Positions 395 to 61,233 of a DNA stretch of 64,000 nucleotides are shown here, piece by piece. The stretch covers positions 2,604,001 through 2,668,000 of the forward strand of contig NZ_CP095390.1 in NCBI RefSeq assembly GCF_023008585.1, in the 5' to 3' direction. The number at the start of each line of letters is the position of its first letter. The first letter of the stretch is position 1. The position numbers and the translations under genes are program-made. The notes beneath the pieces were generated by a model that was given only the letters and a program-made list of their open reading frames with translations, was not told where the DNA came from and did not search any database. Source of the stretch: Natribaculum breve. Lineage in GTDB: Archaea; Halobacteriota; Halobacteria; Halobacteriales; Natrialbaceae.

Positions 395-474
395 TACGGA
401 CTGCTGTACCGGTTTTCCGCAGCGACCGCCCGGCGGGACGTGGTCGCCGCGGGGCGGACGGACAGCGGTCCGTA
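395..474. repeat. Palindromic element, family A, copy 1 (80 bp)
   Basis: The 13-base ends, tacggactgctgt and acagcggtccgta, are inverted repeats with one mismatch. The left flank is TGA (392-394), which is the stop codon of the upstream gene. The right flank is TGC (475-477). The interior closely matches the copy at 61158-61233, including the shared core cgaccgcccggcgggacg. It lies between two convergent genes and could also act as a bidirectional terminator. Confidence 0.75.
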
Positions 475-487
475 TGCGAACCCGGCG

Positions 488-670
488 TTAACCGCTCCAC
501 TCACCGGCGACGTCGCCAGCGACGTTCTCCCGCCAGACCTCGAAGCCCGACTCGCAGTCGGGGCTCTCGCCGAGGTGGTCGACGAAGCCAGCGCCGGGAT
601 CGGGTAAGTCGCCACCGCAGAAGGGACAGGTCGCCGGATCAGCCCAGTTCGTGGTCGTGTTCACGGACAT
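488..670 (-). CDS. Small zinc-finger-like protein (60 aa)
   Basis: This 60-residue protein has a CPFCGG knuckle near residues 15-20, then a His (VDHL) and a further Cys (PDCESGF), giving a plausible Cys3His metal site. Small CPxCG-type proteins like this are common in haloarchaea; from memory it resembles the family called DUF7501, unconfirmed. Such proteins are often regulators or subunits of larger complexes. The start ATG at 670 has a TATA-like stretch (atacttatg, minus strand) about 30 bases upstream. It is divergent from trpB and shares the AT-rich region between them. Function unknown. Confidence 0.75.
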   Translation of the reverse strand: MSVNTTTNWADPATCPFCGGDLPDPGAGFVDHLGESPDCESGFEVWRENVAGDVAGEWSG

Positions 671-690
671 CGGTATCGCTATCTCGGACG

Positions 691-926
691 AGCCATCACA
701 TAAGTATTTTCGCTAAACATATGATATACATATATGGTCATAATATGTACCTAATATTTTCGGGGCGGGTTCGCTCGAGTCGACGTTCGGTCCCACGGCC
801 GATCGATCTCGAGGGCAGCCGGCCGAGATCCGAGACGGTACAGCGACGACCGCAGAGCGACTCGAGTGGATATCGCTGTCCATCTCCGAACGTATTTTTA
901 CCCAGCACGGCAACGGTGGTGTAGAC
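691..926. promoter_or_regulatory. AT-rich divergent promoter region upstream of trpB
   Basis: Bases 700-757 are unusually AT-rich and contain repeated catat/atatg words, which could form operator palindromes. The trpB promoter itself is probably the TATA-like tattttta at 893-900, about 30 bases before the ATG at 927, which would give an almost leaderless transcript. Confidence 0.55.
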
Positions 927-2078
927 ATGTCCCAGGGCGACTTCGAAGGCTACGGGGGACGGCACGTTCCCGAACCGCTGCTCGAACCTCTCGAGCAACT
1001 CGCCGACGCGTACGACGACGTGAGCGCGACCGACGAGTTCCAGACGGAGCTTCGCGACCTCCTAGAGGAGTTCGCCGGCCGGCCGACGCCGATCTACTAC
1101 GCTCGCAACCTGAGCGAACGGTACGGGGTCGACATCTACCTCAAACGCGAGGACCTGCTCCACGGCGGCGCACACAAGATCAACAACGTGCTCGGGCAGG
1201 GCCTGCTCGCGAAGAAGGCGGGTCGCGAGCGGCTGATCGCCGAGACGGGCGCGGGCCAACACGGCGTCGCGACCGCGATGGTCGGCGCGTTGCTCGACCT
1301 CGAGACGGAGATCTACATGGGGAAAAAAGACGTCGAGCGCCAGGAGATGAACGTCTTCCGGATGCGGCTGATGGGTGCCGACGTCAACGAGGTCACTCGC
1401 GGTGACGCCGGACTCGCCGACGCCGTCGACGCCGCACTCGAGGACTTCGCCGAGAACGTCGAGGACACCCACTACCTCGTCGGCAGCGTCGTCGGTCCCG
1501 ACCCGTTCCCGCGGATGGTCCGTGACTTCCAGTCGGTCATCGGCGAGGAAGCCCGCGAACAGATGAAAGCGAAGACGGGCGAACTGCCGGACGCGGCGGT
1601 CGCCTGCGTCGGCGGCGGTTCGAACGCGATCGGGCTCTTCCACGCGTTCCGCGACGACGACGTCGCCTTCTACGGTGCCGAAGGCGGCGGCGAGGGCACA
1701 GATTCGAAGCGCCACGCCGCCCCGCTTTCGAGCGGTGACGACGAGGTTCTCCACGGGATGAAAACGCGCGTGATCGACGAGGACGTCGAGGTCCACTCCG
1801 TCTCCGCAGGGCTGGACTACCCCGGCGTCGGCCCCGAACACGCCATGTTCGACGCGGTGGGTCGCTGTGAGTACACGGGGATTACCGACGACGAGGCCCT
1901 GGCCGCCTTCAGGGAGTTGAGCGAGACCGAGGGGATCATTCCGGCCCTCGAGTCGAGCCACGGGGTGGCACGCGCCCTCCAGCTGGCCGACGACGGCGAA
2001 CACGATACCATCCTGGTGAACCTCTCGGGACGTGGCGACAAGGACATGGAGACTGCGGCCGCGACGTTCGACCTCTGA
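927..2078 (+). CDS. trpB: Tryptophan synthase beta chain, stand-alone copy
   Basis: This 383-residue PLP enzyme of fold type II joins indole to serine to make tryptophan. It has the PLP lysine in HKIN (K84), the catalytic glutamate in ETGAGQHG (E106) and the phosphate-binding loop GGGSNA at 229-234. Length and motifs are those of classical TrpB1. No trpA or trpC is adjacent; the next gene downstream is an unrelated membrane protein. It could be the main TrpB or a second copy working as an indole-salvage or indole-independent enzyme. The stop codon TGA (2076-2078) touches a palindromic element. Confidence 0.93.
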   Translation: MSQGDFEGYGGRHVPEPLLEPLEQLADAYDDVSATDEFQTELRDLLEEFAGRPTPIYYARNLSERYGVDIYLKREDLLHGGAHKINNVLGQGLLAKKAGRERLIAETGAGQHGVATAMVGALLDLETEIYMGKKDVERQEMNVFRMRLMGADVNEVTRGDAGLADAVDAALEDFAENVEDTHYLVGSVVGPDPFPRMVRDFQSVIGEEAREQMKAKTGELPDAAVACVGGGSNAIGLFHAFRDDDVAFYGAEGGGEGTDSKRHAAPLSSGDDEVLHGMKTRVIDEDVEVHSVSAGLDYPGVGPEHAMFDAVGRCEYTGITDDEALAAFRELSETEGIIPALESSHGVARALQLADDGEHDTILVNLSGRGDKDMETAAATFDL

Positions 2079-2158
2079 TACGGACTACTGTAAGTCATTT
2101 CCGACGCATCCGCATGACGGGTTGCAGATGCGCCGGTAAACAGTTACAGCAGACCGTA
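2079..2158. repeat. Palindromic element, family A, copy 2 (80 bp)
   Basis: The ends tacggactactgtaa and ttacagcagaccgta are inverted repeats of 15 bases with two mismatches. There is a second, inner palindrome: cgacgcatccgca pairs with tgcagatgcgccg. The element is flanked by TGA on both sides in direct orientation (2076-2078 and 2159-2161), and the left TGA is the trpB stop codon. The inner sequence differs from the other two family A copies. Confidence 0.75.
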
Positions 2159-2263
2159 TGAACTGACGGCCTCTGGGACTCCGGTCCGACGAGTACGGTC
2201 GACGCTCCGACGGGATCCGAACAGGCCGTCGTTAACTAAGGACACCATCCACCGGCTAGGCAC

Positions 2264-2722
2264 ATGGCCAGTGACGCTTCGGAGGCCACGTCCTCGAGCG
2301 GGCCGGTCACGACCCCGAGTCCGGACGACGCCAGCGGCTACGGCCTCACGCTCACGCTGATCGGGGCCGTCCTCCTCGCGCTCGCGTACTACGGCGTCGT
2401 CGCGATCCAGGGCAGCCACCGACTGGGACAGGCGCTGCCGGAACCGTTCTACTTTCTCGCGCTCGCGTTCCTGTTCGTCGTCGAACTGCTCAACAGTCGT
2501 CAGCGCGGACTCGTCGGACTCGCCCGTGCGATCGCGTTCACCGCGGTCTACGGCGCGCTGTTCGTCTTCGCCGTGGAGGGCGGCGCGTACCTGTGGGCAA
2601 ATCCGAACGTTGCCCTCGAGGGGTACGTCGGCGTGACGGTTCTCGCGATCGCACTCGTCGCCTCGGCACTCGTCTACGTGGGGTATCTGGCGGTACTCGA
2701 GGCCGACGGCGGATCGGCGTGA
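2264..2722 (+). CDS. Integral membrane protein, unknown function
   Basis: The protein has 152 residues. A polar, Ser/Thr-rich N-terminal tail of about 28 residues is followed by four predicted transmembrane helices (about 27-48, 60-78, 85-105 and 122-144). No conserved catalytic motif is visible. It follows trpB after a repeat element, so co-transcription is doubtful. Start ATG 2264 is the first in frame. The CBS-domain gene downstream is convergent, with a 15-base gap. Probably a haloarchaeal lineage-specific membrane protein; I do not recognise the family. Confidence 0.75.
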   Translation: MASDASEATSSSGPVTTPSPDDASGYGLTLTLIGAVLLALAYYGVVAIQGSHRLGQALPEPFYFLALAFLFVVELLNSRQRGLVGLARAIAFTAVYGALFVFAVEGGAYLWANPNVALEGYVGVTVLAIALVASALVYVGYLAVLEADGGSA

Positions 2723-2737
2723 CGGCACACCGCGCCG

Positions 2738-3142
2738 TCACGCGGGACTCGGCGTCTGGACGTGAGACAGGTAAGCTGCGAGATCAGTCGTCGTCACCAT
2801 CCCGATGACGCCCTCCTCCTCGTCGACGACCGGAAGGTGGTGGAAGCCGTGCTCGATCATCGTGTCCGCGACGTCGCGGATCGACGCCTGCGCGTGCGTC
2901 GTGACGACGTCGGTTGTCATGTATCGCGAGACGGACGTCTGCGCTTTCGGATGGCTCTCGGCGACGATTTCGACGAAGTCGGTGGTCGTCAGGATCCCCT
3001 CGAGTCGGTCGTCCCCGTCGACGACGACGACCGAGCCGATGCCGTTCTCGAGCATCGCCTCACCCGCGTCCTCGACGAGCGTGTCGGGAGCGACGGTGTG
3101 GAGGTCGGTGGACATGAGCCGTGCGACGAAAATGTCGTCCAT
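2738..3142 (-). CDS. Two-CBS-domain protein
   Basis: This 134-residue protein is built from two CBS motifs, about residues 8-60 (IGSVVVVDGDDRLEGI) and 73-125 (HHLPVVDEEEGVIGMV). Paired CBS domains bind adenine nucleotides and act as energy or ligand sensors. I chose ATG 3142 over the upstream GTG 3157 because the TATA-like ttcttaata near 3165-3173 lies about 27 bases before it, fitting a leaderless transcript. A paralogue with the same layout is at 32373-32768. The partner enzyme or transporter is not evident from the neighbours. Confidence 0.85.
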   Translation of the reverse strand: MDDIFVARLMSTDLHTVAPDTLVEDAGEAMLENGIGSVVVVDGDDRLEGILTTTDFVEIVAESHPKAQTSVSRYMTTDVVTTHAQASIRDVADTMIEHGFHHLPVVDEEEGVIGMVTTTDLAAYLSHVQTPSPA

Positions 3143-3267
3143 GTGCGAACGTGTCACAGTGCAACGTATTAAGAATTCGTCTCGGCGAACCCGTCGTACT
3201 CGCTCGAGTTTTGAGCCGTCCTCGACCCGATACGACAGGATCTCGACATCGAGTGTGACGCGGACGA

Positions 3268-3280
3268 GAGTTTAAATACG
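3268..3280 (+). promoter_or_regulatory. Candidate promoter of the AddAB-like operon
   Basis: The stretch agtttaaatac is a good haloarchaeal TATA box. It would place the transcript start near 3300, leaving a leader of about 15 bases before the ATG at 3316. No other convincing promoter is seen inside the three-gene unit. Confidence 0.5.
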
Positions 3281-3315
3281 AGAGAGTCACTACTCCGTGA
3301 CAGACCGACCGACTG

Positions 3316-5460
3316 ATGTCTTCGCCCCCCACCGACCTCGACGGCGTCCTGAAGGTCCTCCCGTCGCTTCGCAGCGACGTTCTCGAGGTCGTCACAGCGG
3401 AGTACGCCGCCCTCGCCGACGAGTACGGGCCGGGAAACGTCCTCGTCCTCAAGCGCCAGCCCGCGGGGCTCGAGCGCGTCCGCGAGGCGCTCGCGAGCGC
3501 CGACGCGACGAACGCCACGCCACACAGCCCCCGGGTCGAGTCGCTGCCGGAACACGCCTCGAAGGTTCTCGAGGAGTACGACCCGACGCTCGACCGACTC
3601 GCTTACGAAGAGCGGATCGAACTCGTCTCGATGGTGATCGACGGCGCGAAACGGGACGTCCCGGCGTACCTCGAGCGCGCCCGCCAGCACGACAGCTTCA
3701 CCCGCGACGTCGGACAGTTGCTCCTCGCGGCGACGCGTCAGGGACTTCGCCACGACGACCTCGAGGAGCCCCACGAGTGCCTCGACTTCCTGTACGCGAT
3801 GAACGATCGGTTCCACGAGGAACTGCGCGCCCGGGGGTTCGTCGAGCGGGCGGACGTGATCCCGCGGGCGGTCGACCTCCTCGAGGACGACCGTGACGGC
3901 CTGCGAAGCCGCGTCAGTTCGTCGTTCGACGCGGTGCTCGTCCTCGAGTTCGAGGAGTGCCGGCGGCTCGACCGACGGTACCTCGCCGCCCTCACCGCCG
4001 ACGCGACACTCGTCTGCCTCGGCGAGCGCCACGCGAGCGTCGAACGCACGCGGGTCGAGCCCGGCAGTCTCGAGGACCTCGCGGACGGACTCGCGGTCGA
4101 GACGGTCGAGACGGTCGAGTCGCCGACAGCGACGACCACGCGGGCGAGTGCCGATCACGGGACGATCGTCGACCTCCTCGCGACGGGCGAGTCGAGCGGC
4201 GAGCCCGCGAGTGTACGGCGAATACGGGCCGGAACGGCTCGCGAGCAGGACCGGCAGGTCGCCACGGAGATACAGGCCCTCTGCGATCGCCACGACGAGT
4301 GGCGCTACGACGACGTGGCGGTCGCCGTCCCGACGGTCGAACGGGTTCCCGAGACGCGAGAACGCCTTCGAGACGCGGGGGTCCCGACGGCGACGGTCGG
4401 CACGCACTCGCTCGCCCAGGACCCCGCGGTCAACGAACTCTACGCGTTCGTCGCGTACAACAGCGGTCACGACCGGGAAACCGCTCGAGAGCGGCTGGCC
4501 GCTCGCGTCCCCGACTTCGCTCCCGGCCTCGTCGAGGAGTGTACCGGCTCGAGTCTCGCCCGGTCGCTCGAGCGCTGGCTCGTTCGCACCGACCTGAAAC
4601 GGCGGATCGCCGAGAGCGAGACGTGGGTCGACGCCCGCGAACAGTACGAGAGCGTCCGTCGCGTCCTCGAGATCGCCCGGTTCGTCGAGGAGACCGACGT
4701 CGTCGCTCCCGACTGGGCGGGGTTGCGCCGGATGCTTCGTCGAACGATCGAGTACGACGCGCCGTACGTCCACGACGTCGAGACGCGCCCCGAAACGGGG
4801 GGCGTGACGGTCTGTCCCGTCGCCGATCTCAAGTACGACGGACGCGAGGCGGTCTTCCTGCTCGACCTGCTCGACGACAGCTATCCCGGCCGACAGCACC
4901 TCACGAACCTGTTCCCGACGCCGTGGCTCGAGTCGATGCCGAACTACCCGGCCGTCACCGGTCCGTCGCCGGCCGACGTGGCACGCACGTTCGCTCCCGT
5001 CTCGTCGCCCGCGTCGGTCGGGAACCCGTTCGAGGCCTACCACGCCCAGCGGGCCAGACGGACGCTCGCACTGGGCGCGCGGGCGGCGCGCTCGCGCCTG
5101 TACTTCTGTTCGTACGAACGTGAGTCGGGCGGCCTCGGGCGATCGCGAGAGGAGTCGCGGTACGTGAAACTGCTGGCAGACCACCCCGACGTCGCTCTCG
5201 AGGACGTCGACGCACGTTCCCGGGAGGCGGCAGTTTACGGCCGCGCCAACGCGCTCGAGGAGTTGCTCGCAGAACCGCGAGGGGAACTCGAGCGAGTGCT
5301 CCGGGAGGCGAGCACCGGCGGCGAGGCGGACCTCGCAGAGACCGAGGCGCTGTTCGAGGAGATCGCCGTCGTCCTCGAGGGCGACGTCGACGAGGAACTC
5401 GTGACGGCCGTCCGCTCGCAGTTCGAGTTCGCCGCCGGCGAGGTGGTGCGGCGTGACTGA
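3316..5460 (+). CDS. AddB/RecC-like inactivated SF1 helicase scaffold
   Basis: The 714-residue protein follows the order of a UvrD/AddB helicase, but the catalytic residues are gone. Residues 42-60 resemble motif Ia (NVLVLKRQPAGLERVREAL). Residues 204-219 occupy the motif II place, with VLEFEECRRLD instead of DEFQD. Residues 230-238 sit where motif III (GDxDQ) should be. Residues 495-520 resemble motif V without the HQAKGLE signature, and ARSRLYFCSYERE (near 590) resembles motif VI. There is no Walker A motif at the N terminus. Its 3' end overlaps the next gene by 8 bases, and an active AddA-like helicase follows. I infer a structural DNA-binding subunit; the assignment rests on motif order and context only. 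Confidence 0.65.
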   Translation: MSSPPTDLDGVLKVLPSLRSDVLEVVTAEYAALADEYGPGNVLVLKRQPAGLERVREALASADATNATPHSPRVESLPEHASKVLEEYDPTLDRLAYEERIELVSMVIDGAKRDVPAYLERARQHDSFTRDVGQLLLAATRQGLRHDDLEEPHECLDFLYAMNDRFHEELRARGFVERADVIPRAVDLLEDDRDGLRSRVSSSFDAVLVLEFEECRRLDRRYLAALTADATLVCLGERHASVERTRVEPGSLEDLADGLAVETVETVESPTATTTRASADHGTIVDLLATGESSGEPASVRRIRAGTAREQDRQVATEIQALCDRHDEWRYDDVAVAVPTVERVPETRERLRDAGVPTATVGTHSLAQDPAVNELYAFVAYNSGHDRETARERLAARVPDFAPGLVEECTGSSLARSLERWLVRTDLKRRIAESETWVDAREQYESVRRVLEIARFVEETDVVAPDWAGLRRMLRRTIEYDAPYVHDVETRPETGGVTVCPVADLKYDGREAVFLLDLLDDSYPGRQHLTNLFPTPWLESMPNYPAVTGPSPADVARTFAPVSSPASVGNPFEAYHAQRARRTLALGARAARSRLYFCSYERESGGLGRSREESRYVKLLADHPDVALEDVDARSREAAVYGRANALEELLAEPRGELERVLREASTGGEADLAETEALFEEIAVVLEGDVDEELVTAVRSQFEFAAGEVVRRD

Positions 5461-6457
5461 GCGCGTCTCGATCGAGGGGGTGCGAACGTATCTCCACTGT
5501 CCGCGCCGGTACGAGTTCGCCCACGTCCACGGACTCGAGAGCGAGGACGACGACCCGCCGGAGACGCGACGCCTCGAGTTGCTACGAACGGCGATCTGTG
5601 ACGCGTTGCGAACCGGTCGCACCGACCGCGACGACCTCGAGGCGGCCGCCATCGATCGGCTCACGGAACTGTGGACCAGCCACGGCGAGCGGTTCCACTC
5701 GCTGGCCCAGCGCCGCCACGAGCGCCAGCGACTCGAGGCCGCCGTTCGAGCGTACGTCGCGGACGTCGGCGCCGAGCACGTTCGTGGCGTGACGAAACTG
5801 CGCCGGGAAACCGACGAGGAACTGCTGGGACCGGAGCTTCCGCTGTCGGCGACGATCCCGCTCCCCGACGGCACGGGAGTCGAGGTCGAATCGGTCGTCG
5901 ACTACGTCACCACCGACGGGGGCTCGCTGACGGGCGTCCGGTTCGTCCCGACGCTCGCCCCGCTCGGACTGCTCCGGTACCGGTCGGAGTGGGAAGGCGA
6001 CGTCGCCGCGCTCTTTACCGATCACTTCGATCCCGACGACGACCGGTTCGAACCGGACGCCGTCGGCGCGCTGTTCGAGACGGCCGTCGTTCTCGAGGGA
6101 TTGCGCGACCTCCGGGATCGACTCGAACTCGAACACCGGACGTGTCGGTACGTGCAGGTGCCGCTCGTCGAGCGCTCGAGCGCCTCTGTCAACTGGGTTC
6201 GCGAGACCGTCGAGACGAGCCTCGAGACGGTCGACCTGACGGACGTCTTCCTCGATCACCACACGTTCGGGATGACTCACGAACACCGCAACCGGACCGT
6301 CGAGAGCCGACTGGGCGAGACGCTCGAGAACCTGCTGTCGGGTGCGTTCGATCCGACGTCGGCGTGGGACCGGATCGTCGACCGGTCCTGTCCGGACTGC
6401 GGGTACGCCGTCTGCTGTGGGGAGTACATGGCCACGGAGGTGCGATTCGATGGGTGA
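5453..6457 (+). CDS. AddB C-terminal-like Fe-S nuclease domain, D-x-K motif lost
   Basis: The 334-residue protein has the cysteine layout of AddB/Cas4-type iron-sulfur nucleases: one Cys in HCPRRYEF (C16) and a terminal cluster CPDCGYAVCC (C313, C316, C321, C322). The nuclease core keeps an Asp in SVVDYV (D150). Where the D-x-K catalytic strand should follow, the sequence reads LTGVRFVPT, so nuclease activity is unlikely. The start ATG 5453 overlaps the upstream gene by 8 bases, and the next start overlaps this stop by 8 bases, implying translational coupling. I infer that it is the detached C-terminal part of an AddB-like subunit, kept for structure or DNA-end binding. Confidence 0.65.
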   Translation: MTERVSIEGVRTYLHCPRRYEFAHVHGLESEDDDPPETRRLELLRTAICDALRTGRTDRDDLEAAAIDRLTELWTSHGERFHSLAQRRHERQRLEAAVRAYVADVGAEHVRGVTKLRRETDEELLGPELPLSATIPLPDGTGVEVESVVDYVTTDGGSLTGVRFVPTLAPLGLLRYRSEWEGDVAALFTDHFDPDDDRFEPDAVGALFETAVVLEGLRDLRDRLELEHRTCRYVQVPLVERSSASVNWVRETVETSLETVDLTDVFLDHHTFGMTHEHRNRTVESRLGETLENLLSGAFDPTSAWDRIVDRSCPDCGYAVCCGEYMATEVRFDG

Positions 6458-9400: not shown

Positions 9401-10124
9401 GTGTGCGCGCAAACACTACCTCGATCACGTGGTCGACGCGGTAGACGACCCGATCTCGAGAGGGGGAACGACGCCGAACGCACGCGCCGTCGGCAGGGTC
9501 TTCCACGCCGTCGCCGAGGAGGCGTTCTACCGCGAGTATCGAACCGACGAGCAGTGGCGCGAGGCCGCGGTGCGCCAGTTGACTGCTCGCGATCTCACCG
9601 ACGCTCGAGAGGCCGTCCTCGAGTGCGTCGACCGGTACTTCGTCGCGACCGCGCCGACGGTCGACGCGCCCGTCCACGAGTGGGAGCCGCTCGCGGCCGA
9701 ACTGCCGTTTGCGCTCGAGGACGTCCCCGGGATCGACGGCGACGTCGTCGGCTACGTCGACTCGGTCCGGCGGACGCCGGCGGGCGACCTCGTCGTCCTC
9801 GACTACAAGACGACGGCCGAGCGGATCGATCCGGAAGAGGCGGCCCAGTTGCGACTGTACCTGCGAGCCTGCGAGACGCTGTTCGACGAGCCGGTTGCCC
9901 GCGCGGGCTACGTCTACGTGGGCGAGAGCGGGCCCCACGTCGACCTGTTCGCTCGAGGCGACCTCCCGGCGTGGGCGTCGGTCCGCGAGACGCTCGCGGC
10001 GGTCGACGACCCCTCGTTCGCGGAGACGACGCCGGGAGATCACTGCCGGTTCTGCCCGCACCGGTCGCTGGGCTGTGCACCCGCGGAGTACGCGGTCGAC
10101 GAACAGGCAGTCGGAGACGACTGA
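6450..10124 (+). CDS. AddA-like UvrD-family helicase with C-terminal Fe-S nuclease
   Basis: This 1224-residue protein has a complete SF1A helicase: Q motif GNQRAAL, Walker A AGAGTGKTT (K52), motif II CDEFQDTD (D397), motif III GDKDQAIYGWRG, motif IV LNFRSKQE, motif V TVHQAKGLQFD near 736-748 and motif VI VALTRAENHLFL near 808. The C-terminal PD-(D/E)XK nuclease is intact, with VGYVD, LDYK (D1118, K1120) and a Q-x3-Y motif. Four cysteines (C985, C1199, C1202, C1209) fit the AddB/Cas4-type Fe-S cluster. I chose ATG 6450, which overlaps the previous gene by 8 bases; the frame is open further upstream but reads as antisense-like noise there. Likely role: resection of double-strand breaks with the two upstream proteins. 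Confidence 0.85.
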   Translation: MGDADATDDGVDGDAESGQTNEHPDGPKGNQRAALESRAACTSVDAGAGTGKTTTMLMRIERAIERGEVAPEDVLVLTFANEAAASIREAVSERLGPEDAAEIDVYTYHSLCHHLVREYAYYLGFSPEFDVVTERGRRRIVRRLLEDGDYEFADSSTRGDGSATDLADSLDRFIREMSQEDVDPETLTDRLPDVRTLEVLGEFVLWLEREAGENLSFDDEALRYFNREEHVEEARESLIDYGKLLTYCREKIAEAPDEFHDDAVVSDVRRYLGVLQTCVTNTLEALSLDEPTTKHLPRALFGNEIRRNATSTIEQTPFGRLKHYLEFLRLARHYTEVYADYRAYLERERIVDFDELVRTATRLLEDGGPDRAGNEGATANESVADEITNRWAQVYCDEFQDTDGTQFRLITQLTAGEDRPDLFAIGDKDQAIYGWRGTDREGLDRLAVTYDDHEAIELELNFRSKQEILDLTNHCAYGTQSSKTLREVGRTPGEYETADPPVRVGRIDGDEIEFSTPEQVATTVSRLLNGEFDDVPRRSLADVAVIVRTNRHAQAIADELRDRQIPYEVSGSARGEVRPGTQTVLSYLRVVVDPTADAHLRRVLAYRYRLSAADLERLQSHDGSLYDALATADPTGFDDPERLERARTHLEVLTTMRDVYPLAQFVRRFLEVTRLAWFLTSEERAELERVERFAETYDPGTVLGTLTTSFVDALERTLTGSETGYGRGTRSEACVDVMTVHQAKGLQFDTVLVPYLSDEEWCVETDYAERARYRLLEATLDDDVDSPLLADLASETVGEEWRVLHVALTRAENHLFLFGSSYDYEGGEGELATSTAEACLADEIEWRVAGERMDLWSSLTESFDRVRDRYPKTVADLTEEIAVAADVTPGTITYYGNYGERSVEPLATREAIETVHRLGRLLRDGTLLPAADAADHVDVRIPTGRSPSALSSDTVRFPVETLASAGDLPVAMRHSYSAMRTHEECARKHYLDHVVDAVDDPISRGGTTPNARAVGRVFHAVAEEAFYREYRTDEQWREAAVRQLTARDLTDAREAVLECVDRYFVATAPTVDAPVHEWEPLAAELPFALEDVPGIDGDVVGYVDSVRRTPAGDLVVLDYKTTAERIDPEEAAQLRLYLRACETLFDEPVARAGYVYVGESGPHVDLFARGDLPAWASVRETLAAVDDPSFAETTPGDHCRFCPHRSLGCAPAEYAVDEQAVGDD

Positions 10125-10170
10125 TAATGATGGGTGTGACTGGGTTCGACGCGCCCACACGACGGGTCGC
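10125..10170. repeat. Palindromic element, family C, partial copy
   Basis: The first 46 bases after the helicase stop codon (taatgatgggtgtgactggg onward, including cacgacgggtcgc) match one half of the full element at 39829-39908, read on its minus strand. The second half is missing. The TGA stop at 10122-10124 abuts the element, as in several other copies. Confidence 0.6.
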
Positions 10171-10205
10171 AGACGTTTTATCTCGTGGCGTCCGAACCGC
10201 CGACG

Positions 10206-10691: not shown

Positions 10692-10700
10692 CGCCGCGGG

Positions 10701-39301: not shown

Positions 39302-39416
39302 GCACGAACGGTGACGCGCACGGGCCAAAACGGCTTCGATACGGCAAGAAGCGACCGTCGTGATCGAACTAGACGAGAGAGAGACCGTCCGCTCGTCTAC
39401 CCGTCTGGCGAACTCA

Positions 39417-39494
39417 TACTATCGGACGTAACTGTGTGAAGATTCTCGCCACCCCGGGACGGCGAGAATCTTTCACGACTTACGTCTGGCAGTA
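39417..39494. repeat. Palindromic element, family B, copy 1 (78 bp)
   Basis: The ends tactatcggacgtaa and ttacgtctggcagta form an imperfect inverted repeat. Inside, gattctcgcc and ggcgagaatc form a perfect 10-base stem. Both flanks are TCA on the plus strand (39414-39416 and 39495-39497), which is TGA on the minus strand. The right one is the stop codon of the next gene. It matches the copy at 59793-59870 at all but one position. Confidence 0.8.
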
Positions 39495-39719
39495 TCAGGC
39501 GAGTTCGACCCTGTAGTAGTCGGTGAAGACGATCACTTCGCCGTCGACGAACTCCGCGTCGTCGACGGCCGTAGACGGTGAACCAGACTCGAGCAGGGCG
39601 TGAAATCGCTCGAGGGCGGACTCGCTCAGTTCGTCGACGTGGCGCACTCGAGCGGCCGCGTGAACCGAGTCGGTTCGGCGCAGCGAGAGCGTTCGGCGGA
39701 CGGTATCGCTGGTGGACAT
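39495..39719 (-). CDS. Small haloarchaeal protein (74 aa)
   Basis: The 74-residue soluble protein reads like a compact helix-strand domain: a basic start (RRTLSLRRTDS), a helical middle (LSESALERFHALLESG) and a strand-rich end (EVIVFTDYYRVELA). I do not recognise the family. ATG 39719 is preferred because the TATA-like ttataccg (39747-39753, minus strand) is about 27 bases upstream. The stop codon TGA is also the flank of a palindromic element. Confidence 0.65.
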   Translation of the reverse strand: MSTSDTVRRTLSLRRTDSVHAAARVRHVDELSESALERFHALLESGSPSTAVDDAEFVDGEVIVFTDYYRVELA

Positions 39720-40019
39720 GTGGTATGACATCAATTAGCACGATACGGTATAAACGTTTGGTTTGACGCAGATTTCACGCGACCGACGGGCGACGCAGAC
39801 TCGAAAGGAGCGAGTCCGTCGGTCGTGATAACGATAGCCGTGAGTCTGTACCGCCGCGACCGCGACCCGTCGTGCGGTCGCGTCGGCAACCAGTCACAGC
39901 CATCATTATGGGACGTCTCCCGGTCGGCGGTCGTCTCGAGCAGGCGACGATGGGAAGCCCCAAGCCGGGGCCGACACTGGCACACAACGCTCTTATTACA
40001 GGGGACTGTACCCTCGGGT
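39720..40019. other. Intergenic region holding a family C element
   Basis: It contains the promoter of the 74-residue protein at its left end, the full family C palindrome in the middle and the TATA box of the next gene (tcttatta, about 27 bases before 40020) at its right end. No gene is seen in the rest. Confidence 0.5.
39829..39908. repeat. Palindromic element, family C, full copy (80 bp)
   Basis: The ends taacgatagccgtgagt and, read on the other strand, taatgatggctgtgact are related inverted repeats. Inside, gcgaccgc and gcggtcgc form a perfect 8-base stem. The flanks are TGA (39826-39828) and TGG (39909-39911). Half of it recurs at 10125-10170. Confidence 0.7.
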
Positions 40020-50820: not shown

Positions 50821-50865
50821 CCCCGGACCACCACCGATTAGTACAATCGGAGAATACCACCGGGT

Positions 50866-53586: not shown

Positions 53587-53910
53587 ATGGTCGAGAGTCC
53601 GTTCGACGTCGAGATTCGCGTCGGCGAAGTACTGGAAGCGGAGGCGTTTCCGGAGACGAACAAGCCGAAAATGACGAAGCTGCGTATCGACCTCGGCGAC
53701 GAGGAGATCCAGTCCTGTGCGCAACTGGGCTACCACCACGACCTCGACGAGCTGCCGGGAACGCAGGTGCTCTGTGCGACGAACCTCGGGTCGGTACGGA
53801 TCGCCGGCTTCGAGTCCGAGGCGCTGACCGTCGGCGTCCCGGAAGAGGACGGGAATCCGGTGCTGGTGACGCCGGAGAGTGAGGTGCCGCTGGGCGGCGT
53901 GCTGTTCTGA
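53587..53910 (+). CDS. tRNA-binding (CsaA/EMAP-II-like) domain protein
   Basis: The 107-residue OB-fold protein has the family pattern DVEIRVGEVLEAEAFPETNK and the conserved end segment (LVTPESEVPLGGVLF). Such stand-alone domains bind tRNA and, in the CsaA group, have chaperone activity. ATG 53587 is chosen. It stands between the propeller lipoprotein and mutS. Role in the cell is inferred from family. Confidence 0.88.
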   Translation: MVESPFDVEIRVGEVLEAEAFPETNKPKMTKLRIDLGDEEIQSCAQLGYHHDLDELPGTQVLCATNLGSVRIAGFESEALTVGVPEEDGNPVLVTPESEVPLGGVLF

Positions 53911-54071
53911 ATCGCTCGAGCGGCCTCGGCTCGAGCTCTCCCGCTCGCAGGTTCCGATCGATGTCGCCCCCCGCACCGACCGATACCGACCAGACGGTCG
54001 AAACGTTCTCCGTGGATCACTTTCACCGCGGAACCCGCAGGACTTTTGCGCTCGAGGGCCACTGGCCCAGT

Positions 54072-56693
54072 ATGACCGAGGCGACGGGTATCGTCGGAGA
54101 GTTCCTCTCGCTGAAAGCGGAGACGGACGCGGAGTTGTTGGCGATGCAGTGTGGCGACTTCTACGAGTTCTTCGACGAGGACGCCGAGATCGTCGGCGAC
54201 GAACTCGATCTCAAGGTGTCACAGAAGTCCTCTCACGGCTCGTCGTACCCGATGGCCGGGGTGCCGGTCGACGACCTCACCCCCTACCTCAAGGCGCTCG
54301 TCGAGCGCGGCTACCGCGTGGCGGTCGCCGACCAGTACGAGACCGAGAGCGGCCACGCCCGCGAGATCGTCCGGGTCGTCACGCCGGGCACCTTGCTCGA
54401 GACGAGCGACGCCGACGCCCAGTACCTCGCGGCCGTCGTCGAGGGCTCGAGCGGGACCTACGGCCTCGCGTTCGCGGACGTGACGACCGGGCGCTTTCTC
54501 GTCGCCGGGGCGGCAGACGCCGACGAGGTGCTGACGGAACTGTACCGGTTCGGCCCGGTCGAGATCCTGCCCGGTCCCGAGGCGCGAAACGACGACGACC
54601 TGCTGAGCCGGGTACGAGAGCGGACCGACGCGACGCTCACGCTCCACGACGCGGAGGCGTTCGCCCCGAAGCGGGCGACCCACGCCGTCCGGGAGCAGTT
54701 CGGCCGCGAGACGGTCGACCGACTCGCCGTCCCCGAACCCGGGATCGCCGCCGCGGGGGCCGTCCTCGCCTACGTCGAGGAGACCGGCGCGGGCGTGCTG
54801 GCCTCGATGACCCGCATCCAGGCCCACCACGGCGACGACCACGTCACCCTCGACGCGACCACCCAGCGCAACCTCGAGTTGAGCGAGACGATGCACGGCG
54901 GCAGCGAGGGCTCGCTGTTCGCGACGATCGATCACACCGTGACGAGCGCGGGCGGTCGCCTGCTCAAGGAGTGGCTCTGTCGTCCCCGGCGCTCGCTGTC
55001 GACGCTCGAGCGACGCCAGGAGAGCGTCGCCGCGCTCTCGACGGCTGCGCTCGCCCGCGACGAGATCCGCGAGACGCTGGGCGAGGCCTACGACCTGGAA
55101 CGGCTGGCCTCGAAGGCGACCCACGGCAGCGCCGACGCCGGCGATCTGCTCGCCGTCCGAGATACCCTCGCCGTCCTGCCGGCGCTGGCAGATGCTATCG
55201 AGGCGGAGCCTGCGCTTTCCGACTCGCCGCTCACCGAGATCGTCGACCGGCCAGACCGCGAGGCGGCCGCCGACTTACACGACGCGCTCGCGGACGCCCT
55301 CGCCGAGGACCCACCGTCGACGGTGACCCAGGGCGGTCTGCTCGAGCGCGGCTACGACGACGAACTCGACGAGGTGATCGACCGCCACGAGGAGGTCCGG
55401 GAGTGGCTCGACACCCTCGCCGACCGCGAGAAACGCCAGCACGGTCTCAGTCACGTCACCGTCGACCGGAACAAGACCGACGGCTACTACATCCAGGTCG
55501 GCAAGTCCGCCGCCGACGGGGTTCCGGACCACTACGAGCAGATCAAGACGCTGAAAAACTCGAAGCGATTTACGACCGCAGAACTCGAGGAGAAAGAACG
55601 CGAGATCCTGCGACTCGAGGAACGGCGCGGCGATCTCGAGTACGAACTCTTCTGTGAACTTCGCGAGGAGGTCGCGGCTCGTGCGGAACTGCTCCAGGAC
55701 GTCGGCCGGGCGCTGGCGACCGTCGACGCGCTGGCGAGTCTGGCGACCCACGCCGCCGAAAACCGCTGGGTTCGACCCGACCTCCACCGGGGCGAGGACC
55801 TCGAGATCGACCAGGGTCGCCACCCGGTCGTCGAACAGACCACGGAGTTCGTCCCGAACGACGTGCGAATGGACGACGAACGTGGCTTTCTCGTCGTGAC
55901 GGGACCCAACATGTCCGGGAAGTCGACGTACATGCGCCAGGTGGCGCTGATCGTCCTGCTCGCGCAGGTGGGCAGTTTCGTCCCGGCTCGAGACGCGTCG
56001 ATCGGCCTCGTCGACGGCATCTTCACCCGCGTCGGGGCGCTCGACGAACTCGCGCAGGGTCGGTCGACGTTCATGGTCGAGATGAGCGAACTCTCGAACA
56101 TCCTCCACACCGCCACCGAAGAGTCGCTGGTGATCTTAGACGAGGTGGGCCGGGGCACGGCGACCTACGACGGCATCTCGATCGCGTGGGCCGCCACCGA
56201 GTACCTGCACAACGAGATCCGGGCGAAGACGCTCTTTGCGACCCACTACCACGAGCTGACGGGGCTGGCAGAACACCTCCCCCGGGTCGCGAACGTCCAC
56301 GTCGCGGCCGACGAGCGCGACGGCGACGTCACCTTCCTGCGCACGGTCAGAGACGGCCCGACCGATCGCAGTTACGGCATCCACGTCGCCGACCTCGCGG
56401 GCGTCCCCGAACCCGTCGTCGACAGGGCGCGGGACGTCTTAGAACGGCTGCGCGAGGAGAAGGCCATCGAGGCGAAAGGCGGCGGCTCGAGCGACCCCGT
56501 CCAGACCGTCTTCGACGTCTCGAGCGGGCAATTTCGCGGACCGGCCAACGCCGACGGTGGCGATCCGACGTCCGACCGCGATCCGGAACTCGAGGAGATC
56601 GTCGAGGACCTCGAGTCGATCGACGTCAACGCGACGCCGCCGGTCGAGTTGATGGCGAAAGTCCAGGAGTGGCAGCGGCGGCTAAAGGAGTGA
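54072..56693 (+). CDS. mutS: DNA mismatch repair protein MutS
   Basis: The 873-residue MutS has the mismatch-binding GDFYEFF (F30, Y31, E32), the lever and clamp domains, the Walker A loop GPNMSGKST (K617) and the Walker B region LVILDEVGRGTATYDG. The C-terminal end has a short acidic extension. ATG 54072 is chosen because a TATA-like gacttttgcgc lies about 27 bases upstream; the frame is open to 53961. A mutL gene follows 750 bases later, with a hydrolase remnant between them. Confidence 0.95.
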   Translation: MTEATGIVGEFLSLKAETDAELLAMQCGDFYEFFDEDAEIVGDELDLKVSQKSSHGSSYPMAGVPVDDLTPYLKALVERGYRVAVADQYETESGHAREIVRVVTPGTLLETSDADAQYLAAVVEGSSGTYGLAFADVTTGRFLVAGAADADEVLTELYRFGPVEILPGPEARNDDDLLSRVRERTDATLTLHDAEAFAPKRATHAVREQFGRETVDRLAVPEPGIAAAGAVLAYVEETGAGVLASMTRIQAHHGDDHVTLDATTQRNLELSETMHGGSEGSLFATIDHTVTSAGGRLLKEWLCRPRRSLSTLERRQESVAALSTAALARDEIRETLGEAYDLERLASKATHGSADAGDLLAVRDTLAVLPALADAIEAEPALSDSPLTEIVDRPDREAAADLHDALADALAEDPPSTVTQGGLLERGYDDELDEVIDRHEEVREWLDTLADREKRQHGLSHVTVDRNKTDGYYIQVGKSAADGVPDHYEQIKTLKNSKRFTTAELEEKEREILRLEERRGDLEYELFCELREEVAARAELLQDVGRALATVDALASLATHAAENRWVRPDLHRGEDLEIDQGRHPVVEQTTEFVPNDVRMDDERGFLVVTGPNMSGKSTYMRQVALIVLLAQVGSFVPARDASIGLVDGIFTRVGALDELAQGRSTFMVEMSELSNILHTATEESLVILDEVGRGTATYDGISIAWAATEYLHNEIRAKTLFATHYHELTGLAEHLPRVANVHVAADERDGDVTFLRTVRDGPTDRSYGIHVADLAGVPEPVVDRARDVLERLREEKAIEAKGGGSSDPVQTVFDVSSGQFRGPANADGGDPTSDRDPELEEIVEDLESIDVNATPPVELMAKVQEWQRRLKE

Positions 56694-56742
56694 ACACAGG
56701 AGCACGAACGAGACTCGCTCGAGCGTCGAGTACGCCCGGGCG

Positions 56743-57231
56743 ATGGGGGACCTCGAGAACTTCGTCGGGATGCTCGCCGCCTCGGTCGGACTGCTCGGGG
56801 CGCTGGCAGAACGAGCGCGCGAGCGGGGCAGCCCGGGCGTCGTCGCGTCCGGGATCAGCCTCGGCGGCTGGGCGGTGAACCTCCACCGGGCCTGCGTCGG
56901 GGACCTCGAGCGTTACGCGCCGATCTTCGCGGGGGCCGCCCTGGGCGAGATGTTCGTCTCGTCGGTCTACCGCAGAACGACCGGGGAACGGGCGCGGGCG
57001 AACCCGGATCGGCTGCGGAACGTGCTGGACTTCGAGGGGGCGTTCGCGGCTGGCGACGCCGACGACTGCTCGCCGCTTTTGGCCCGCTACGACCGGATCG
57101 TCGAGTTCGAGCGTCAGCGAGGGATCTACGACGACCACCCGCTCGCGGTGATCGAGAAGGGCCACGTCACGGGATCGCTCGCGACGGAGACGCTCCGGGG
57201 GCACGTCCTCGAGGCGATCCGTCGAACCTGA
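56743..57231 (+). pseudogene. 5'-truncated alpha/beta-hydrolase
   Basis: The 162-residue frame resembles the C-terminal half of an alpha/beta hydrolase: nucleophile elbow SGISLGGWAVNLHRA (Ser near residue 39), APIFAGAALGEMF and the terminal histidine region IEKGHVTGSLATETL. The N-terminal strands and the oxyanion part are missing; the bases just upstream of the ATG still translate to protein-like residues (VEYARAMGDLENF), which suggests a 5' deletion. Whether it is translated is unknown. It sits between mutS and mutL. Confidence 0.6.
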
Positions 57232-57441
57232 TACCGCCTGAGAAAACGGGTCACACACTGCTCGCACGTGAGACGCTGTCGCCGGTGGCGACACACTCGA
57301 GTCGCGATCGGGCGTGTCCTGACTGTTGTCCAGGAGTACGACCGCCGCTCACGCGACAGAACTATTGACACCCCACACCAAGGCGGGATAGCACCGCAAT
57401 CGAACGACGCCACACCGACGCGTCGCACTCGAGCACTACCC

Positions 57442-59601
57442 ATGACCGACCCGAACGCCCCGACCGACGAGACGGAGATTCACCAGCTAGACGAGGACAC
57501 CGTCGCCCGCATCGCCGCAGGCGAGGTCGTCGAGCGGCCAGCCTCGGCGGTCAAGGAACTCGTCGAGAACAGCCTGGACGCCGACGCCTCGAGTATCGAC
57601 GTCGAAGTCGAAGCGGGCGGGACGGAGCTGATCCGGGTCGCCGACGACGGCCACGGGATGACCGAGGCCGACGTCCGCGCGGCCGTCCGCCAGCACACGA
57701 CGAGCAAGATCGACGGCCTCGAGGACATCGAGTCGGGCGTCACGACCCTCGGCTTCCGGGGTGAGGCGCTGCACACCATCGGCTCCGTCTCGCGGCTGAC
57801 GATCCGGTCCCGGCCGCGAGACGGCGACGGGGCGGGGACGGAACTCGTCTACGAGGGCGGCGAGGTGACGAGCGTCGAGCCGACGGGCTGTCCCGAGGGG
57901 ACCGCGGTCGAGGTCGCGGACCTCTTTTACAACACGCCCGCCCGCCGGAAGTTCCTCAAGACCACGGCGACGGAGTTCGCCCACGTCAACCGCGTCGTCA
58001 CGCGGTACGCGCTCGCGAACCCCGACGTCGCCGTCTCGCTCACCCACGACGGTCGAGAGGTGTTCGCCACGACGGGACAGGGCGACCTGCAGGCGGCCGT
58101 CCTCGCCGTCTACGGTCGCGAGGTCGCCCGGGCGATGATCCCCGTCGACGCCGACGGCGACGACCTCCCGCCGGGTCCACTCGAGTCGGTCTCCGGGCTC
58201 GTCTCCCACCCAGAGACCAACCGCTCGAGTCGCGAGTACCTCGCGACGTACGTCAACAGCCGGGCAGTCAACTCCGATCCGATCCGCGAGGGGATCATGG
58301 GGGCCTACGGCAACCAGCTGGGCGGCGACCGCTACCCGTTCGTCGTCGCGTTTCTGGAGGCTCCAGGCGACGCCGTCGACGTGAACGTCCACCCGCGCAA
58401 GCGCGAGGTCAGGTTCGACGACGACGACGCCGTCCGCCGCCAGGTCGACGCGGCGGTGGAGGCGGCGTTGCTCGAGCACGGTCTGTTGCGCTCGCGAGCG
58501 CCGCGGGGCCGGTCGGCACCCGGCGAGGCCCGGATCGAACCCGGCGGGGGGGACGCAGACGAGCGCCGACGGCCGACCGCCGGGAGGGAATCGACGCTCG
58601 AGCGCGACGCGGCCGACGCGTCGACGACGAACGAAACGGGTCCCGACAGTGCCACGAGTCGCACGACGCCGACCGACGACGAGCGGTCGACGACGTCAGA
58701 CGACGGAGCGGCGGACGCCGAGACGGCGACCGCCGAATCGAAGATCCGGAGCCCGGACGCCGCCTCGAGCCCCGAGGGGTCGACGACGGAACCGTCAGAA
58801 CGCGAGACGGCCGGAGAGCCGGACTCGAGGGTCGGCCCCGACCGGGCGTCCAGCGACGATCGAAGCGCGCAGGGAGACGACAGCGCTCGCGTCGACCACG
58901 GCGACCGCGAGGGCGACCGCGACCGCAAGTTCACCGCGGCGACCGAACAGCGAACCCTCGAGGGCGAGGCTGCGACGGGCGACGGGACGCGCTTCGACTC
59001 GCTGCCGCCGCTTCGCGTCCTCGGGCAACTGCACGACACCTACGTCGTCTGCGAGACGCCCGACGGCCTGGCGCTGATCGACCAGCACGCCGCCGACGAA
59101 CGCGTGAACTACGAACGGCTTCGGGACGCGTTCGCGAGCGATTCCACGGCGCAGGCGCTCGCCTCCCCGGTCGAACTCGAACTCACCGCCGCCGAGGCGG
59201 AGGCGTTCGAGGGCTACCGCGAGGCGCTCTCGAGGCTCGGCTTCTACGCCGACCGGGTCGACGACCGCACCGTGGCGGTGACGACGGTTCCGGCCGTCGT
59301 AGAGGAGACGCTCGAGCCGGACCGACTCCGAGACGTCCTCGCGTCGTTCGTCGAGGGTGACCGCGAGTCGGGTGCCGAAACGGTCGACGCGCTCGCCGAC
59401 GAGTTCCTCGCGGATCTCGCGTGTTACCCCTCGATCACGGGCAACACGTCGCTGACGGAGGGGTCGGTCGTCGACCTCCTGGCCGCCCTCGACGACTGCG
59501 AGAACCCCTACTCCTGTCCGCACGGCCGGCCGGTGATCGTCCGACTCGACGAACGCGAACTCGAGGAGCGGTTCGAGCGCGACTATCCCGGACACGGGTG
59601 A
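57442..59601 (+). CDS. mutL: DNA mismatch repair protein MutL, endonuclease type
   Basis: The 719-residue MutL has the GHKL ATPase (VKELVENSLDA with E42, DDGHGMTEAD, GFRGEALHTI), the transducer domain, then an acidic, low-complexity linker of about 150 residues (about 355-510). The C-terminal domain carries DQHA-x2-E-x4-E (D547-, DQHAADERVNYE) and CPHGRP, so it should nick DNA like MutL of bacteria without MutH. ATG 57442 starts the family similarity; the frame is open upstream to 57268. Confidence 0.95.
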   Translation: MTDPNAPTDETEIHQLDEDTVARIAAGEVVERPASAVKELVENSLDADASSIDVEVEAGGTELIRVADDGHGMTEADVRAAVRQHTTSKIDGLEDIESGVTTLGFRGEALHTIGSVSRLTIRSRPRDGDGAGTELVYEGGEVTSVEPTGCPEGTAVEVADLFYNTPARRKFLKTTATEFAHVNRVVTRYALANPDVAVSLTHDGREVFATTGQGDLQAAVLAVYGREVARAMIPVDADGDDLPPGPLESVSGLVSHPETNRSSREYLATYVNSRAVNSDPIREGIMGAYGNQLGGDRYPFVVAFLEAPGDAVDVNVHPRKREVRFDDDDAVRRQVDAAVEAALLEHGLLRSRAPRGRSAPGEARIEPGGGDADERRRPTAGRESTLERDAADASTTNETGPDSATSRTTPTDDERSTTSDDGAADAETATAESKIRSPDAASSPEGSTTEPSERETAGEPDSRVGPDRASSDDRSAQGDDSARVDHGDREGDRDRKFTAATEQRTLEGEAATGDGTRFDSLPPLRVLGQLHDTYVVCETPDGLALIDQHAADERVNYERLRDAFASDSTAQALASPVELELTAAEAEAFEGYREALSRLGFYADRVDDRTVAVTTVPAVVEETLEPDRLRDVLASFVEGDRESGAETVDALADEFLADLACYPSITGNTSLTEGSVVDLLAALDDCENPYSCPHGRPVIVRLDERELEERFERDYPGHG

Positions 59602-60036
59602 CTCGAGGCAAGCGAGACCGCGACGGGTCGCTCGACCGACGAGGAACGAGCACGTGCCGATGAACAAAACGATCGTCACCGTCGCCGCGAACTATTAGTA
59701 CACACAACATTACAAATAATATTAATATTCGATTATTCACATCGAGGAGAGATTTACAACATTTGTCATATTGCTAGTCCACAATGGCTTCATACTATCG
59801 GACGTAACTGTGTGAAGATTCTCGCCACCCCGGGACGGCGAGAATCTTTCACGACTTACGTCCGGCAGTATCACGAGAGGTCAAACTCCAGAGTACCGTC
59901 GACGGGTACACCGCGACCGGGAAACTCCACACGCTCAGCGTCTGGTTTATCCTCGCACTCCGGTTGATGACGCCGACTCTTTCCTCTCGTAGGCCGTCTC
60001 TCGGCCGAACTCGTTCGACAGAACGGCGCGCTCGAG
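59602..60036. other. Intergenic region with AT-rich segment and family B element
   Basis: Bases 59690-59790 are strongly AT-rich (tacaaataatattaatattcg and similar). A family B palindrome follows at 59793-59870. To its right, 59871-60036 shows no real gene; a short minus-strand frame reads ...VDGTLEFDLS before the TGA at 59873-59871, which may be the remnant of a gene. No RNA gene is seen. Confidence 0.5.
59793..59870. repeat. Palindromic element, family B, copy 2 (78 bp)
   Basis: Same 78 bases as at 39417-39494 with one substitution in the right arm. Both flanks are TCA on the plus strand (59790-59792 and 59871-59873), i.e. TGA on the minus strand, in direct orientation. Confidence 0.8.
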
Positions 60037-60990
60037 CTACCTCGAGATGTCTTCGGTCCGATCGGAGACGACCGCGTCGACCTCTTCTTTGGTGACCAGT
60101 GCGACGTCGCCGGGAACGGTGCGCTTGAGCGCCGCCGTCGCGGAGGCGTACTCGAGCGCCTTCGGGACGTCGTCGCCGGCGAGTCGGCGGGCGATGAACG
60201 CACCGGTGAACGCGTCGCCGGTGCCGATGGGGTCGACGGTTTCGGTGTCGTAGACCTCGTGGTCGTGGACGACGTTGTCGTGCCAGGCGAGTGCGCCCTG
60301 GTCGCCGCGCGTGACGACGACGGTGGTGAAGTCGAACTGCGAGGCGAGTTTGTGCGCGAGCTGGCGCGGGTCGCCCTCGTAGTCGAGCACCGTGCGGGCG
60401 TCGCGGGCGGCGATCAGCAGGATGTCGATCCCCGGGAAGAGTTTGAGAAGCGTCTCCCGGGCTTCCGCGGGCGACCAGAGCTTGCGACGGTAGTTGACGT
60501 CGAACGCCGTCGTCGTCTCGGCCTCTCGGGCCGCTTTCAGCATGTTCACCGTCGTCTCCCGCAGGGTCGACGAGAGGGCCGGCGTGATCCCCGACGTGAA
60601 GAAGACGCGGGCGTCCTGGATCAGGTCGACGTCGAACTCCTCGGCTTTGGCCGTCGTGATGGCGGCGTCTTCGCGGTCGTAAACGACGTTCGTCCCGCGA
60701 GGTTTGCCGCCGTGCTCGAGGTAGTAGATCCCCTGCCGTCCCGACTGGCTCCAGACGACGTCCGTGTCGATTCCGTACTGGTTGAGTTCGCCGACGACGC
60801 GCCGTCCGAGCGGCGAGTCGGGGAGCTTCGAGGTCCACGTCGAGACGGCCCCCAGTCGTTCGGCGGCGACGGCGACGTTGCTCTCTGCACCCGCAGCGCG
60901 GACCTCGAACTCGCTTGCGGACTCGATGCGTTCGTTCCCCGGCGGAGAGAGACGAAGCATCGTCTCGCCGAAGGTGACGAGGTCGCTCAC
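60037..60990 (-). CDS. kdgK: 2-keto-3-deoxygluconate kinase (PfkB family)
   Basis: The 317-residue ribokinase-family protein begins [18 protein letters not shown], ends near SDRTEDI, and has the catalytic [13 protein letters not shown] (D259). Similarity to the haloarchaeal KDG kinase of the semi-phosphorylative Entner-Doudoroff pathway is good. It phosphorylates KDG, perhaps also its galactose form. The start is GTG 60990, by homology; a leader of about 50 bases would follow the TATA-like acttatacc near 61064-61072. Alternative GTG starts lie 9 and 57 bases upstream. Confidence 0.88.
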
Positions 60991-61157
60991 GAGTGCCACC
61001 ACCGAACGCCGTGTCGTCCGGTATCGAAAGTCTCGGTCATACGTCACGAGACGGAACGGAACGGTATAAGTGGTGTAGTTAGTGGGAGCCCACAAGCAGT
61101 CCCAGCGACGTCGTCGGCCGATTCAAGCGCCGCCAGCACGCGAACAAGGACCGCCTG

Positions 61158-61233
61158 TACGGTCTGCCGTCGCTCGTTTCCGCCGCGACCGCCCGGCGGG
61201 ACGCGATCGCCGCGGGACGGACGGCGGTCCGTA
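61158..61233. repeat. Palindromic element, family A, copy 3 (76 bp)
   Basis: The ends tacggtctgccgtc and gacggcggtccgta are inverted repeats with two mismatches; the inner sequence (ccgcgaccgcccggcgggac) is that of copy 1. The right flank is TGA (61234-61236) on the plus strand; the left flank is CTG. It lies 7 bases from the rtcA stop codon, not touching it. Confidence 0.7.

What the first reader, a model, noticed from the sequence alone, without database searches (positions are those of the whole stretch)
395..61233. Palindromic elements flanked by TGA direct repeats, often at stop codons
In families A, B and C the terminal inverted repeats start with TA, and the three bases outside are TGA in direct, not inverted, orientation on both sides (2076/2159; minus strand at 39414/39495 and 59790/59871). 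This is what a 3-bp target duplication looks like. One TGA is a gene stop codon in four of seven copies (392, 2076, 10122, 39495). Insertion at TGA would leave the protein unchanged. The rule TGA fits the TNA targets of some IS5-type transposases, but no transposase is in the window.
Basis: partly seen in the sequence, partly recalled or inferred. Interest (0 to 1): 0.8.

Follow-up and report, generated by a model that had tools for sequence, protein, structure and literature searches.

The report
Tiny transposons parked at stop codons
The palindromes are short non-coding mobile elements of salt-loving archaea, mostly 76-108 bp, that copy a 3-base target (T-any-A) when they insert, so a hit on a TGA stop codon rebuilds that stop and leaves the protein unchanged; the enzyme that moves them was not found.

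Summary
The window lies in a 4.35-Mb haloarchaeal genome. Families A, B and C, and a fourth (D) found here, are imperfect palindromes, mostly 76-108 bp, whose terminal repeats begin with TA. In 91 of 99 B copies collected the same 3-mer stands on both sides: TCA 41, TGA 37, TAA 8, TTA 5. The middle base covaries, so this is a TNA target duplication; TGA is one case. Seven sites that are empty in a same-genus genome carry one copy of the target, and nested copies agree. The preferred target is C-T(C/G)A-G. B is a recent burst: 95 forward exact ends here, 5 in the relative. Stop codons: in 394 kb of the relative, 27 of 38 elements start exactly at a predicted stop, against 28% expected from target preference. 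C shows the excess here (28 of 47), A more weakly (22 of 52, p=0.019). The young B family does not (23 of 83, p=0.57). So most of the stop-codon bias looks acquired, by survival or re-use of sites. No transposase with matching ends was found; PF13586 and PF13359 had no match in the genome.

The parts
395..474 (+). family A element (80 bp); flanks TGA (392-394, predicted gene stop) and TGC
   Evidence: fold z -5.1
2079..2158 (+). family A element (80 bp); direct TGA at 2076-2078 (stop of trpB) and 2159-2161
   Evidence: fold z -5.2
10125..10172 (+). left half of a family C element; TGA 10122-10124 is a predicted gene stop; right half lost (end of the remnant approximate)
39417..39494 (-). family B element (78 bp); TCA at 39414-39416 and 39495-39497 (predicted stop of the - strand gene 39495-39731); site empty in G001 with one TCA
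   Evidence: fold z -6.1
39829..39908 (+). family C element (80 bp), intergenic; flanks TGA and TGG
   Evidence: fold z -2.4
57232..57338 (+). family D element (107 bp, degenerate); TGA 57229-57231 is a predicted gene stop, other flank CGA; G001 flanks are 107 bp apart here too
59793..59870 (-). family B element (78 bp), intergenic; direct TCA at 59790-59792 and 59871-59873
   Evidence: fold z -7.6
61158..61233 (+). family A element (76 bp); flanks CTG and TGA; the predicted - strand gene stop is 7 bp away
   Evidence: fold z -2.1

Best explanation
These are MITE-like non-autonomous transposable elements: four related families (A-D), mostly 76-108 bp, imperfect palindromes with terminal repeats beginning with TA. 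They are mobilised in trans by an unidentified cut-and-join transposase that cuts the symmetric target C-TNA-G with a 3-base stagger, so that gap repair leaves TNA on both sides. Because TNA includes TGA and TAA (and TCA, TTA read from the other strand), an insertion into a stop codon rebuilds it and is harmless. Insertions into coding sequence are lost or avoided, and over time insertions next to stops persist best and the same sites are re-used, so old families are concentrated on stop codons. Shown: the anatomy, the TNA duplication, empty sites, the recent burst of B, the depletion from genes and the stop-codon concentration of the older families. Inferred: a transposase acting in trans, the staggered cut, and survival plus re-use as the cause of the stop-codon excess.
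For: B: after removing five copies that are family D or doubtful from the 104, 91 of 99 have the same 3-mer on both sides, and where both flanks are TNA the middle base agrees in 91 of 92; C 33 of 50, A 18 of 55 identical. Of 26 G000 elements placed in G001 stretches, seven sites are cleanly empty: one TCA at window B 39417, L110, L153 (B) and L067 (C); one TGA at L023 (A) and L083 (C); one CGA at L082 (C). Nested copies: B in D (L263) and A in D (L272), TCA on both sides. Of 13 close pairs of elements eight are separated by exactly one TGA or TCA. Target preference: C 0.62 before, G 0.62 after, centre C or G 0.43 each, strands averaged. B exact ends 95 forward in G000, 5 in G001. B insertions per 1000 preferred sites: stop 120, 1-30 nt after a stop 101, within 60 nt of a start 48, coding 1.4 (with the 104 copies). 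G001: 27 of 38 at stops, p 5e-8 against the preferred-site expectation. Plasmid records annotated by others: a feature lies under the best match in 6 of 13 annotated records for A, 4 of 9 for B, 0 of 4 for C; in the eight of these ten that I opened the CDS ends exactly at the element flank, three of the ten being one Haloarcula locus.
Against: No autonomous partner was found. Eight of the 99 B copies lack identical flanks. In A and C the second copy is often CGA (A 20, C 9), TGG once, which random decay does not explain well. A passes the stop-codon test only at p 0.019.
Confidence: 0.85

Rival explanations
1. The elements are actively aimed at stop codons, for example through a target protein, the transcript 3' end or DNA shape at gene ends, so that the stop-codon excess is insertion preference and not survival.
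For: Five of 12 sites occupied in both G000 and G001 carry clearly different element copies with 94-98% identical flanks, against 0.35-1.15 such coincidences expected by a rough estimate; four of the five are at predicted stops, one (L084) with C in G000 and A in G001. C at stops exceeds C at 1-30 nt downstream (odds 3.2, p 0.01; A odds 2.5, p 0.07).
Against: The young family B, least filtered by time, is at stops no more than at neighbouring 3' sites (odds 1.2, p 0.73) and no more than the preferred-site expectation (23 of 83).
Confidence: 0.25
2. The elements serve the host as 3'-end hairpins (transcript ends or mRNA protection, as proposed for REPs) and are kept at stop codons by selection for that role.
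For: Hairpins more stable than shuffled sequence (z -2.1 to -7.6 in eight folded). In A (21 copies of 80 bp) several variable arm positions pair more often than independent arms would, e.g. position 26: 19 of 21 vs 10.7, position 30: 19 of 21 vs 12.4.
Against: Over all positions the arms pair no more than conserved columns predict (A 566 vs 568, C 1248 vs 1275, B 2791 vs 2785, A of 76 bp 187 vs 192). Between orthologous copies there were 12 compensatory and 15 breaking changes, the compensatory ones all at the five sites that hold different copies. 35 of 104 B copies lie away from gene ends by the zones. No Rfam match in the window.
Confidence: 0.15
3. The elements belong to IS630/Tc1-mariner: the terminal TA is the duplicated target and TNA is host sequence.
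For: The four families begin and end with TA.
Against: The clean empty sites hold one TNA (one CGA) and no TA in its place; the middle base of TNA agrees between sides in 91 of 92 B copies.
Confidence: 0.02
4. TNA is part of the element and nothing is duplicated, as reported for Haloquadratum SMRs.
For: A and C flanks are mostly TGA/TCA or one step from it.
Against: N takes all four bases in B but agrees between sides; empty sites already hold the 3-mer.
Confidence: 0.03

Closest known systems
MITEs of prokaryotes, as reviewed in PMC10969869 (passages seen)
   Same: Short, non-coding, terminal inverted repeats, target duplication, many near-identical copies.
   Different: No autonomous element with the same ends found; the whole element is an imperfect palindrome; older copies concentrated exactly on stop codons.
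Small mobile repeats (SMR-A, SMR-B) of Haloquadratum walsbyi, PMC3119063 (sections 25 and 31 and passages read)
   Same: Haloarchaeal, 80-110 bp, prominent terminal repeats, up to 54 copies in a genome, no known mobiliser, target preference (SMR-A).
   Different: SMRs are reported to cause no target duplication and to hit PATEs and IS605-type elements; these duplicate TNA and hit C-TNA-G outside genes.
REPINs and RAYTs, PMC3116915 (passages read)
   Same: Short palindromic repeats outside genes, thought to be mobilised in trans, high copy.
   Different: REPIN movement is proposed to depend on a REP-associated tyrosine transposase; here a 3-bp duplication points to a different chemistry (inference). 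Three Y1 genes exist on contig C2; no link to the elements was looked for.
IS5-family groups and eukaryotic PIF/Harbinger that duplicate TNA (recalled; comes from no call)
   Same: 3-bp TNA duplication.
   Different: The transposase domains PF13586 and PF13359 had no match in the genome; that these are the right domains is recalled.

Membership tests
MITE | short, no room for a transposase gene, terminal inverted repeats, multicopy | tested here: met
   104 B, 50 C, 55 A in the DNA collected, 67-108 bp, five of the B being D or doubtful
MITE | target site duplication | tested here: met
   91 of 99 B copies; seven empty sites
MITE | ends shared with an autonomous transposon | tested here: inconclusive
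   none found; 30 of 54 PF01609 loci and only part of the end matches examined
IS5 family, TNA-duplicating groups | TNA duplication | tested here: met
IS5 family, TNA-duplicating groups | transposase of the PF13586 or PF13359 type in the genome | tested here: not met
   no match in G000; a lost or remote enzyme is not excluded
IS630/Tc1-mariner | TA target duplication | tested here: not met
   clean empty sites hold TNA or CGA, not TA
REPIN/RAYT | no target duplication (recalled) | tested here: not met
   3-bp duplication
REPIN/RAYT | REP-associated Y1 transposase beside the repeats | not tested
   three Y1 genes present on C2; their neighbourhood was not examined
Haloquadratum SMR | 80-110 bp with terminal repeats unrelated to known transposons | tested here: inconclusive
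   size and repeats fit; ends compared only with the 30 PF01609 loci fetched
Haloquadratum SMR | no target duplication | tested here: not met
Haloquadratum SMR | insertion into PATE and IS605-type elements | not tested

The most novel reading that the evidence does not exclude
A stand-alone, host-borne TNA-duplicating transposase, no longer flanked by its own ends, keeps these palindromes moving across haloarchaea, a counterpart of the RAYT/REPIN partnership, and gene stop codons act as standing docking sites that are emptied and refilled by different copies over evolutionary time.
Probability: 0.15. Interest if true: 0.8.

Novelty: new variant of a known kind. Interest (0 to 1): 0.5.

Why it matters
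It shows a simple way for a mobile element to live in a gene-dense genome: a target that, when duplicated, rebuilds a stop codon. A pair of close genomes (one with a burst of about a hundred near-identical copies, one nearly without) makes insertion preference and later selection separable, and the missing transposase is a well-defined target for a search in haloarchaea.

Tried and rejected
Transposase search: PF01609 gave 54 places in G000; 30 came as loci and were examined. A-D ends near them belong to ordinary short elements or are chance-level matches, and the clear end repeats printed (best four per locus) had duplications of other lengths, mostly 8 or 10 bp. PF13586 and PF13359: no match. 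A pattern for B/D ends not followed by the B interior gave 24 places: family D copies and apparent chance matches. Unpaired ends in the loci then held: eight, none beside a recognised transposon of this kind. Ends in G122, G023 and G037: nearly all ordinary short copies.

IS630 rejected on the empty sites; 'TNA is part of the element' rejected on covariation; hairpin selection weakened by the arm-pairing totals and the ortholog comparison.

I saw no paper describing these elements in their listings; the search for the end motifs as text gave three unrelated papers. Subscription papers and ISfinder were not searched. PMC10264941: passages only.

Limits and rows dropped: the listings were cut at 100 places, so the copies counted are those in the loci fetched, not all copies. 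Five of the 104 'B' are family D or doubtful and were removed; still include them. One search dropped copies predicted inside genes (B 5, A 2) and without a TNA flank (B 4, C 2, A 2). The expectation did not mask element interiors; one search did, which moved it from 26% to 28%. Gene ends are from my own gene finder, not annotation.

Full report
What is there. The window is G000:C1:2604001-2668000 of a 4.35-Mb genome; the elements' best plasmid matches are in haloarchaea (Natribaculum, Natronorubrum, Natrinema and others). Those folded are more stable than shuffled sequence.

Copy number. End patterns suggest about 120 B copies in the genome (123 forward and 117 reverse matches at two mismatches; reversed-pattern control 1 and 1), 37 and 39 C-end matches (control 0 and 0), and 72 and 83 A matches against a control of 12 and 14. 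After removing repeats, the loci fetched gave 104 B, 50 C and 55 A; five of the 104 are D or doubtful.

Target duplication. Of the 99 remaining B copies 91 have identical flanking 3-mers: TCA 41, TGA 37, TAA 8, TTA 5. Of 92 with TNA on both sides 91 have the same middle base; eight copies lack identical flanks. C has 33 of 50 and A 18 of 55 identical. G001, of the same genus, is 96% identical over a test stretch. In its fetched stretches 26 G000 elements could be placed. Seven sites are cleanly empty with one copy of the target: TCA at the window B copy, L110, L153 and L067; TGA at L023 and L083; CGA at L082. Thirteen are occupied in both (12 of them compared, L081 not), and six are ambiguous or rearranged. 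A B copy and an A copy are nested in D copies with TCA on both sides (L263, L272), and eight of 13 close pairs share one TGA or TCA between them. The preferred target is C-T(C/G)A-G.

Age. Exact B ends: 95 forward in G000, 5 in G001; 118 of 125 genomes searched in the family have none of this exact 15-mer. A pairs by a strict pattern occur in 46 of 125.

Stop codons. With a gene finder trained on the window, the element starts exactly at a predicted stop in B 25 of 104 (23 of 99 after removal), C 29 of 50, A 22 of 55. Against class-matched non-coding TNA sites in the fetched loci the counts are B 25 against 10.4 expected of 95, C 29 against 5.6 of 48, A 22 against 6.1 of 51. Those loci are rich in non-coding DNA. 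Taking the expectation from 394 kb of contiguous G001 chromosome with elements masked, 28% of preferred sites outside genes are stops: on the G000 chromosome B is 23 of 83 (p 0.57), C 28 of 47 (p 6e-6), A 22 of 52 (p 0.019); G001 itself has 38 elements in that DNA, 27 at exact stops (p 5e-8). By zone, insertions per 1000 preferred sites at the stop, 1-30 nt beyond a stop, and in coding sequence are B 120, 101, 1.4; C 139, 43, 0; A 106, 43, 0.5. So insertions in genes are removed or avoided in the three families tested; exact stops stand out only in the older ones. Annotation by others agrees: among annotated plasmid records a feature lies under the best match in 6 of 13 for A, 4 of 9 for B and 0 of 4 for C. 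I opened 11 regions, eight of them because a feature was listed; in those eight the CDS ends exactly at the element flank (CPBP protease in two Haloarcula records, tpiA, PHP-domain, PhzF, phosphatase, dienelactone hydrolase, universal stress protein); the other three show none.

The window B site. In G001 it holds one TCA. The C-terminal part of the - strand gene reads in the same frame to the same TGA, but upstream G001 differs and my gene finder calls a + strand frame there instead.

Re-use of sites. Of 12 sites occupied in both species, seven hold the same copy (0-3 substitutions, one with an 8-base gap). Five hold different copies (11-31 differences; at L203 the inverted copy differs by 8) although flanks are 94-98% identical. 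Chance coincidence would give roughly 0.35 to 1.15. At L084 the two species have C and A at the same stop codon.

What moves them. Unknown. PF13586 and PF13359 had no match; the 30 of 54 PF01609 loci seen carry other ends and duplication lengths. The target rule resembles TNA-duplicating IS5 groups, which I state from memory.

Unexplained. In A and C the copy away from the TGA read as stop is often CGA (A 20, C 9), with TGG once. It could be decay, removal of the ATG made by element end plus TGA, or a base carried by the element; three empty sites fit the last, which I could not settle.

Verdict. A haloarchaeal set of MITE-like elements with a TNA target duplication; orphan for now; older copies concentrated on stop codons.

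Noticed in passing
window 57232-57338: A degenerate family D element (107 bp), predicted TGA gene stop on one side and CGA on the other; the G001 flanks are equally far apart.
   Followed up: yes
L066, L202, L203, L084, L217 against G001: Orthologous sites hold different element copies in two close species; at L203 the other copy is inverted, at L084 the families differ.
   Followed up: partly
flanks of A and C copies, e.g. L023, L083, L082: The second target copy is often CGA instead of TGA; other changes are fewer.
   Followed up: partly
G000:C1:3031728-3031846 (L185): Four copies of a C-family end 33 bp apart in a row, perhaps an internal tandem amplification.
   Followed up: no
G049 and G043 A elements: The central loop of A elements occurs in both orientations inside otherwise like arms, as if it had been flipped.
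   Followed up: no
L289 (G122), about 945-1051: A further palindromic family (about 107 bp, ends like TACTGTCGGTCAT) directly next to a B copy.
   Followed up: no
window near 39630 against L235: G001 seems to carry about 1.07 kb extra here: the B1 right flank aligns at two places that far apart.
   Followed up: no
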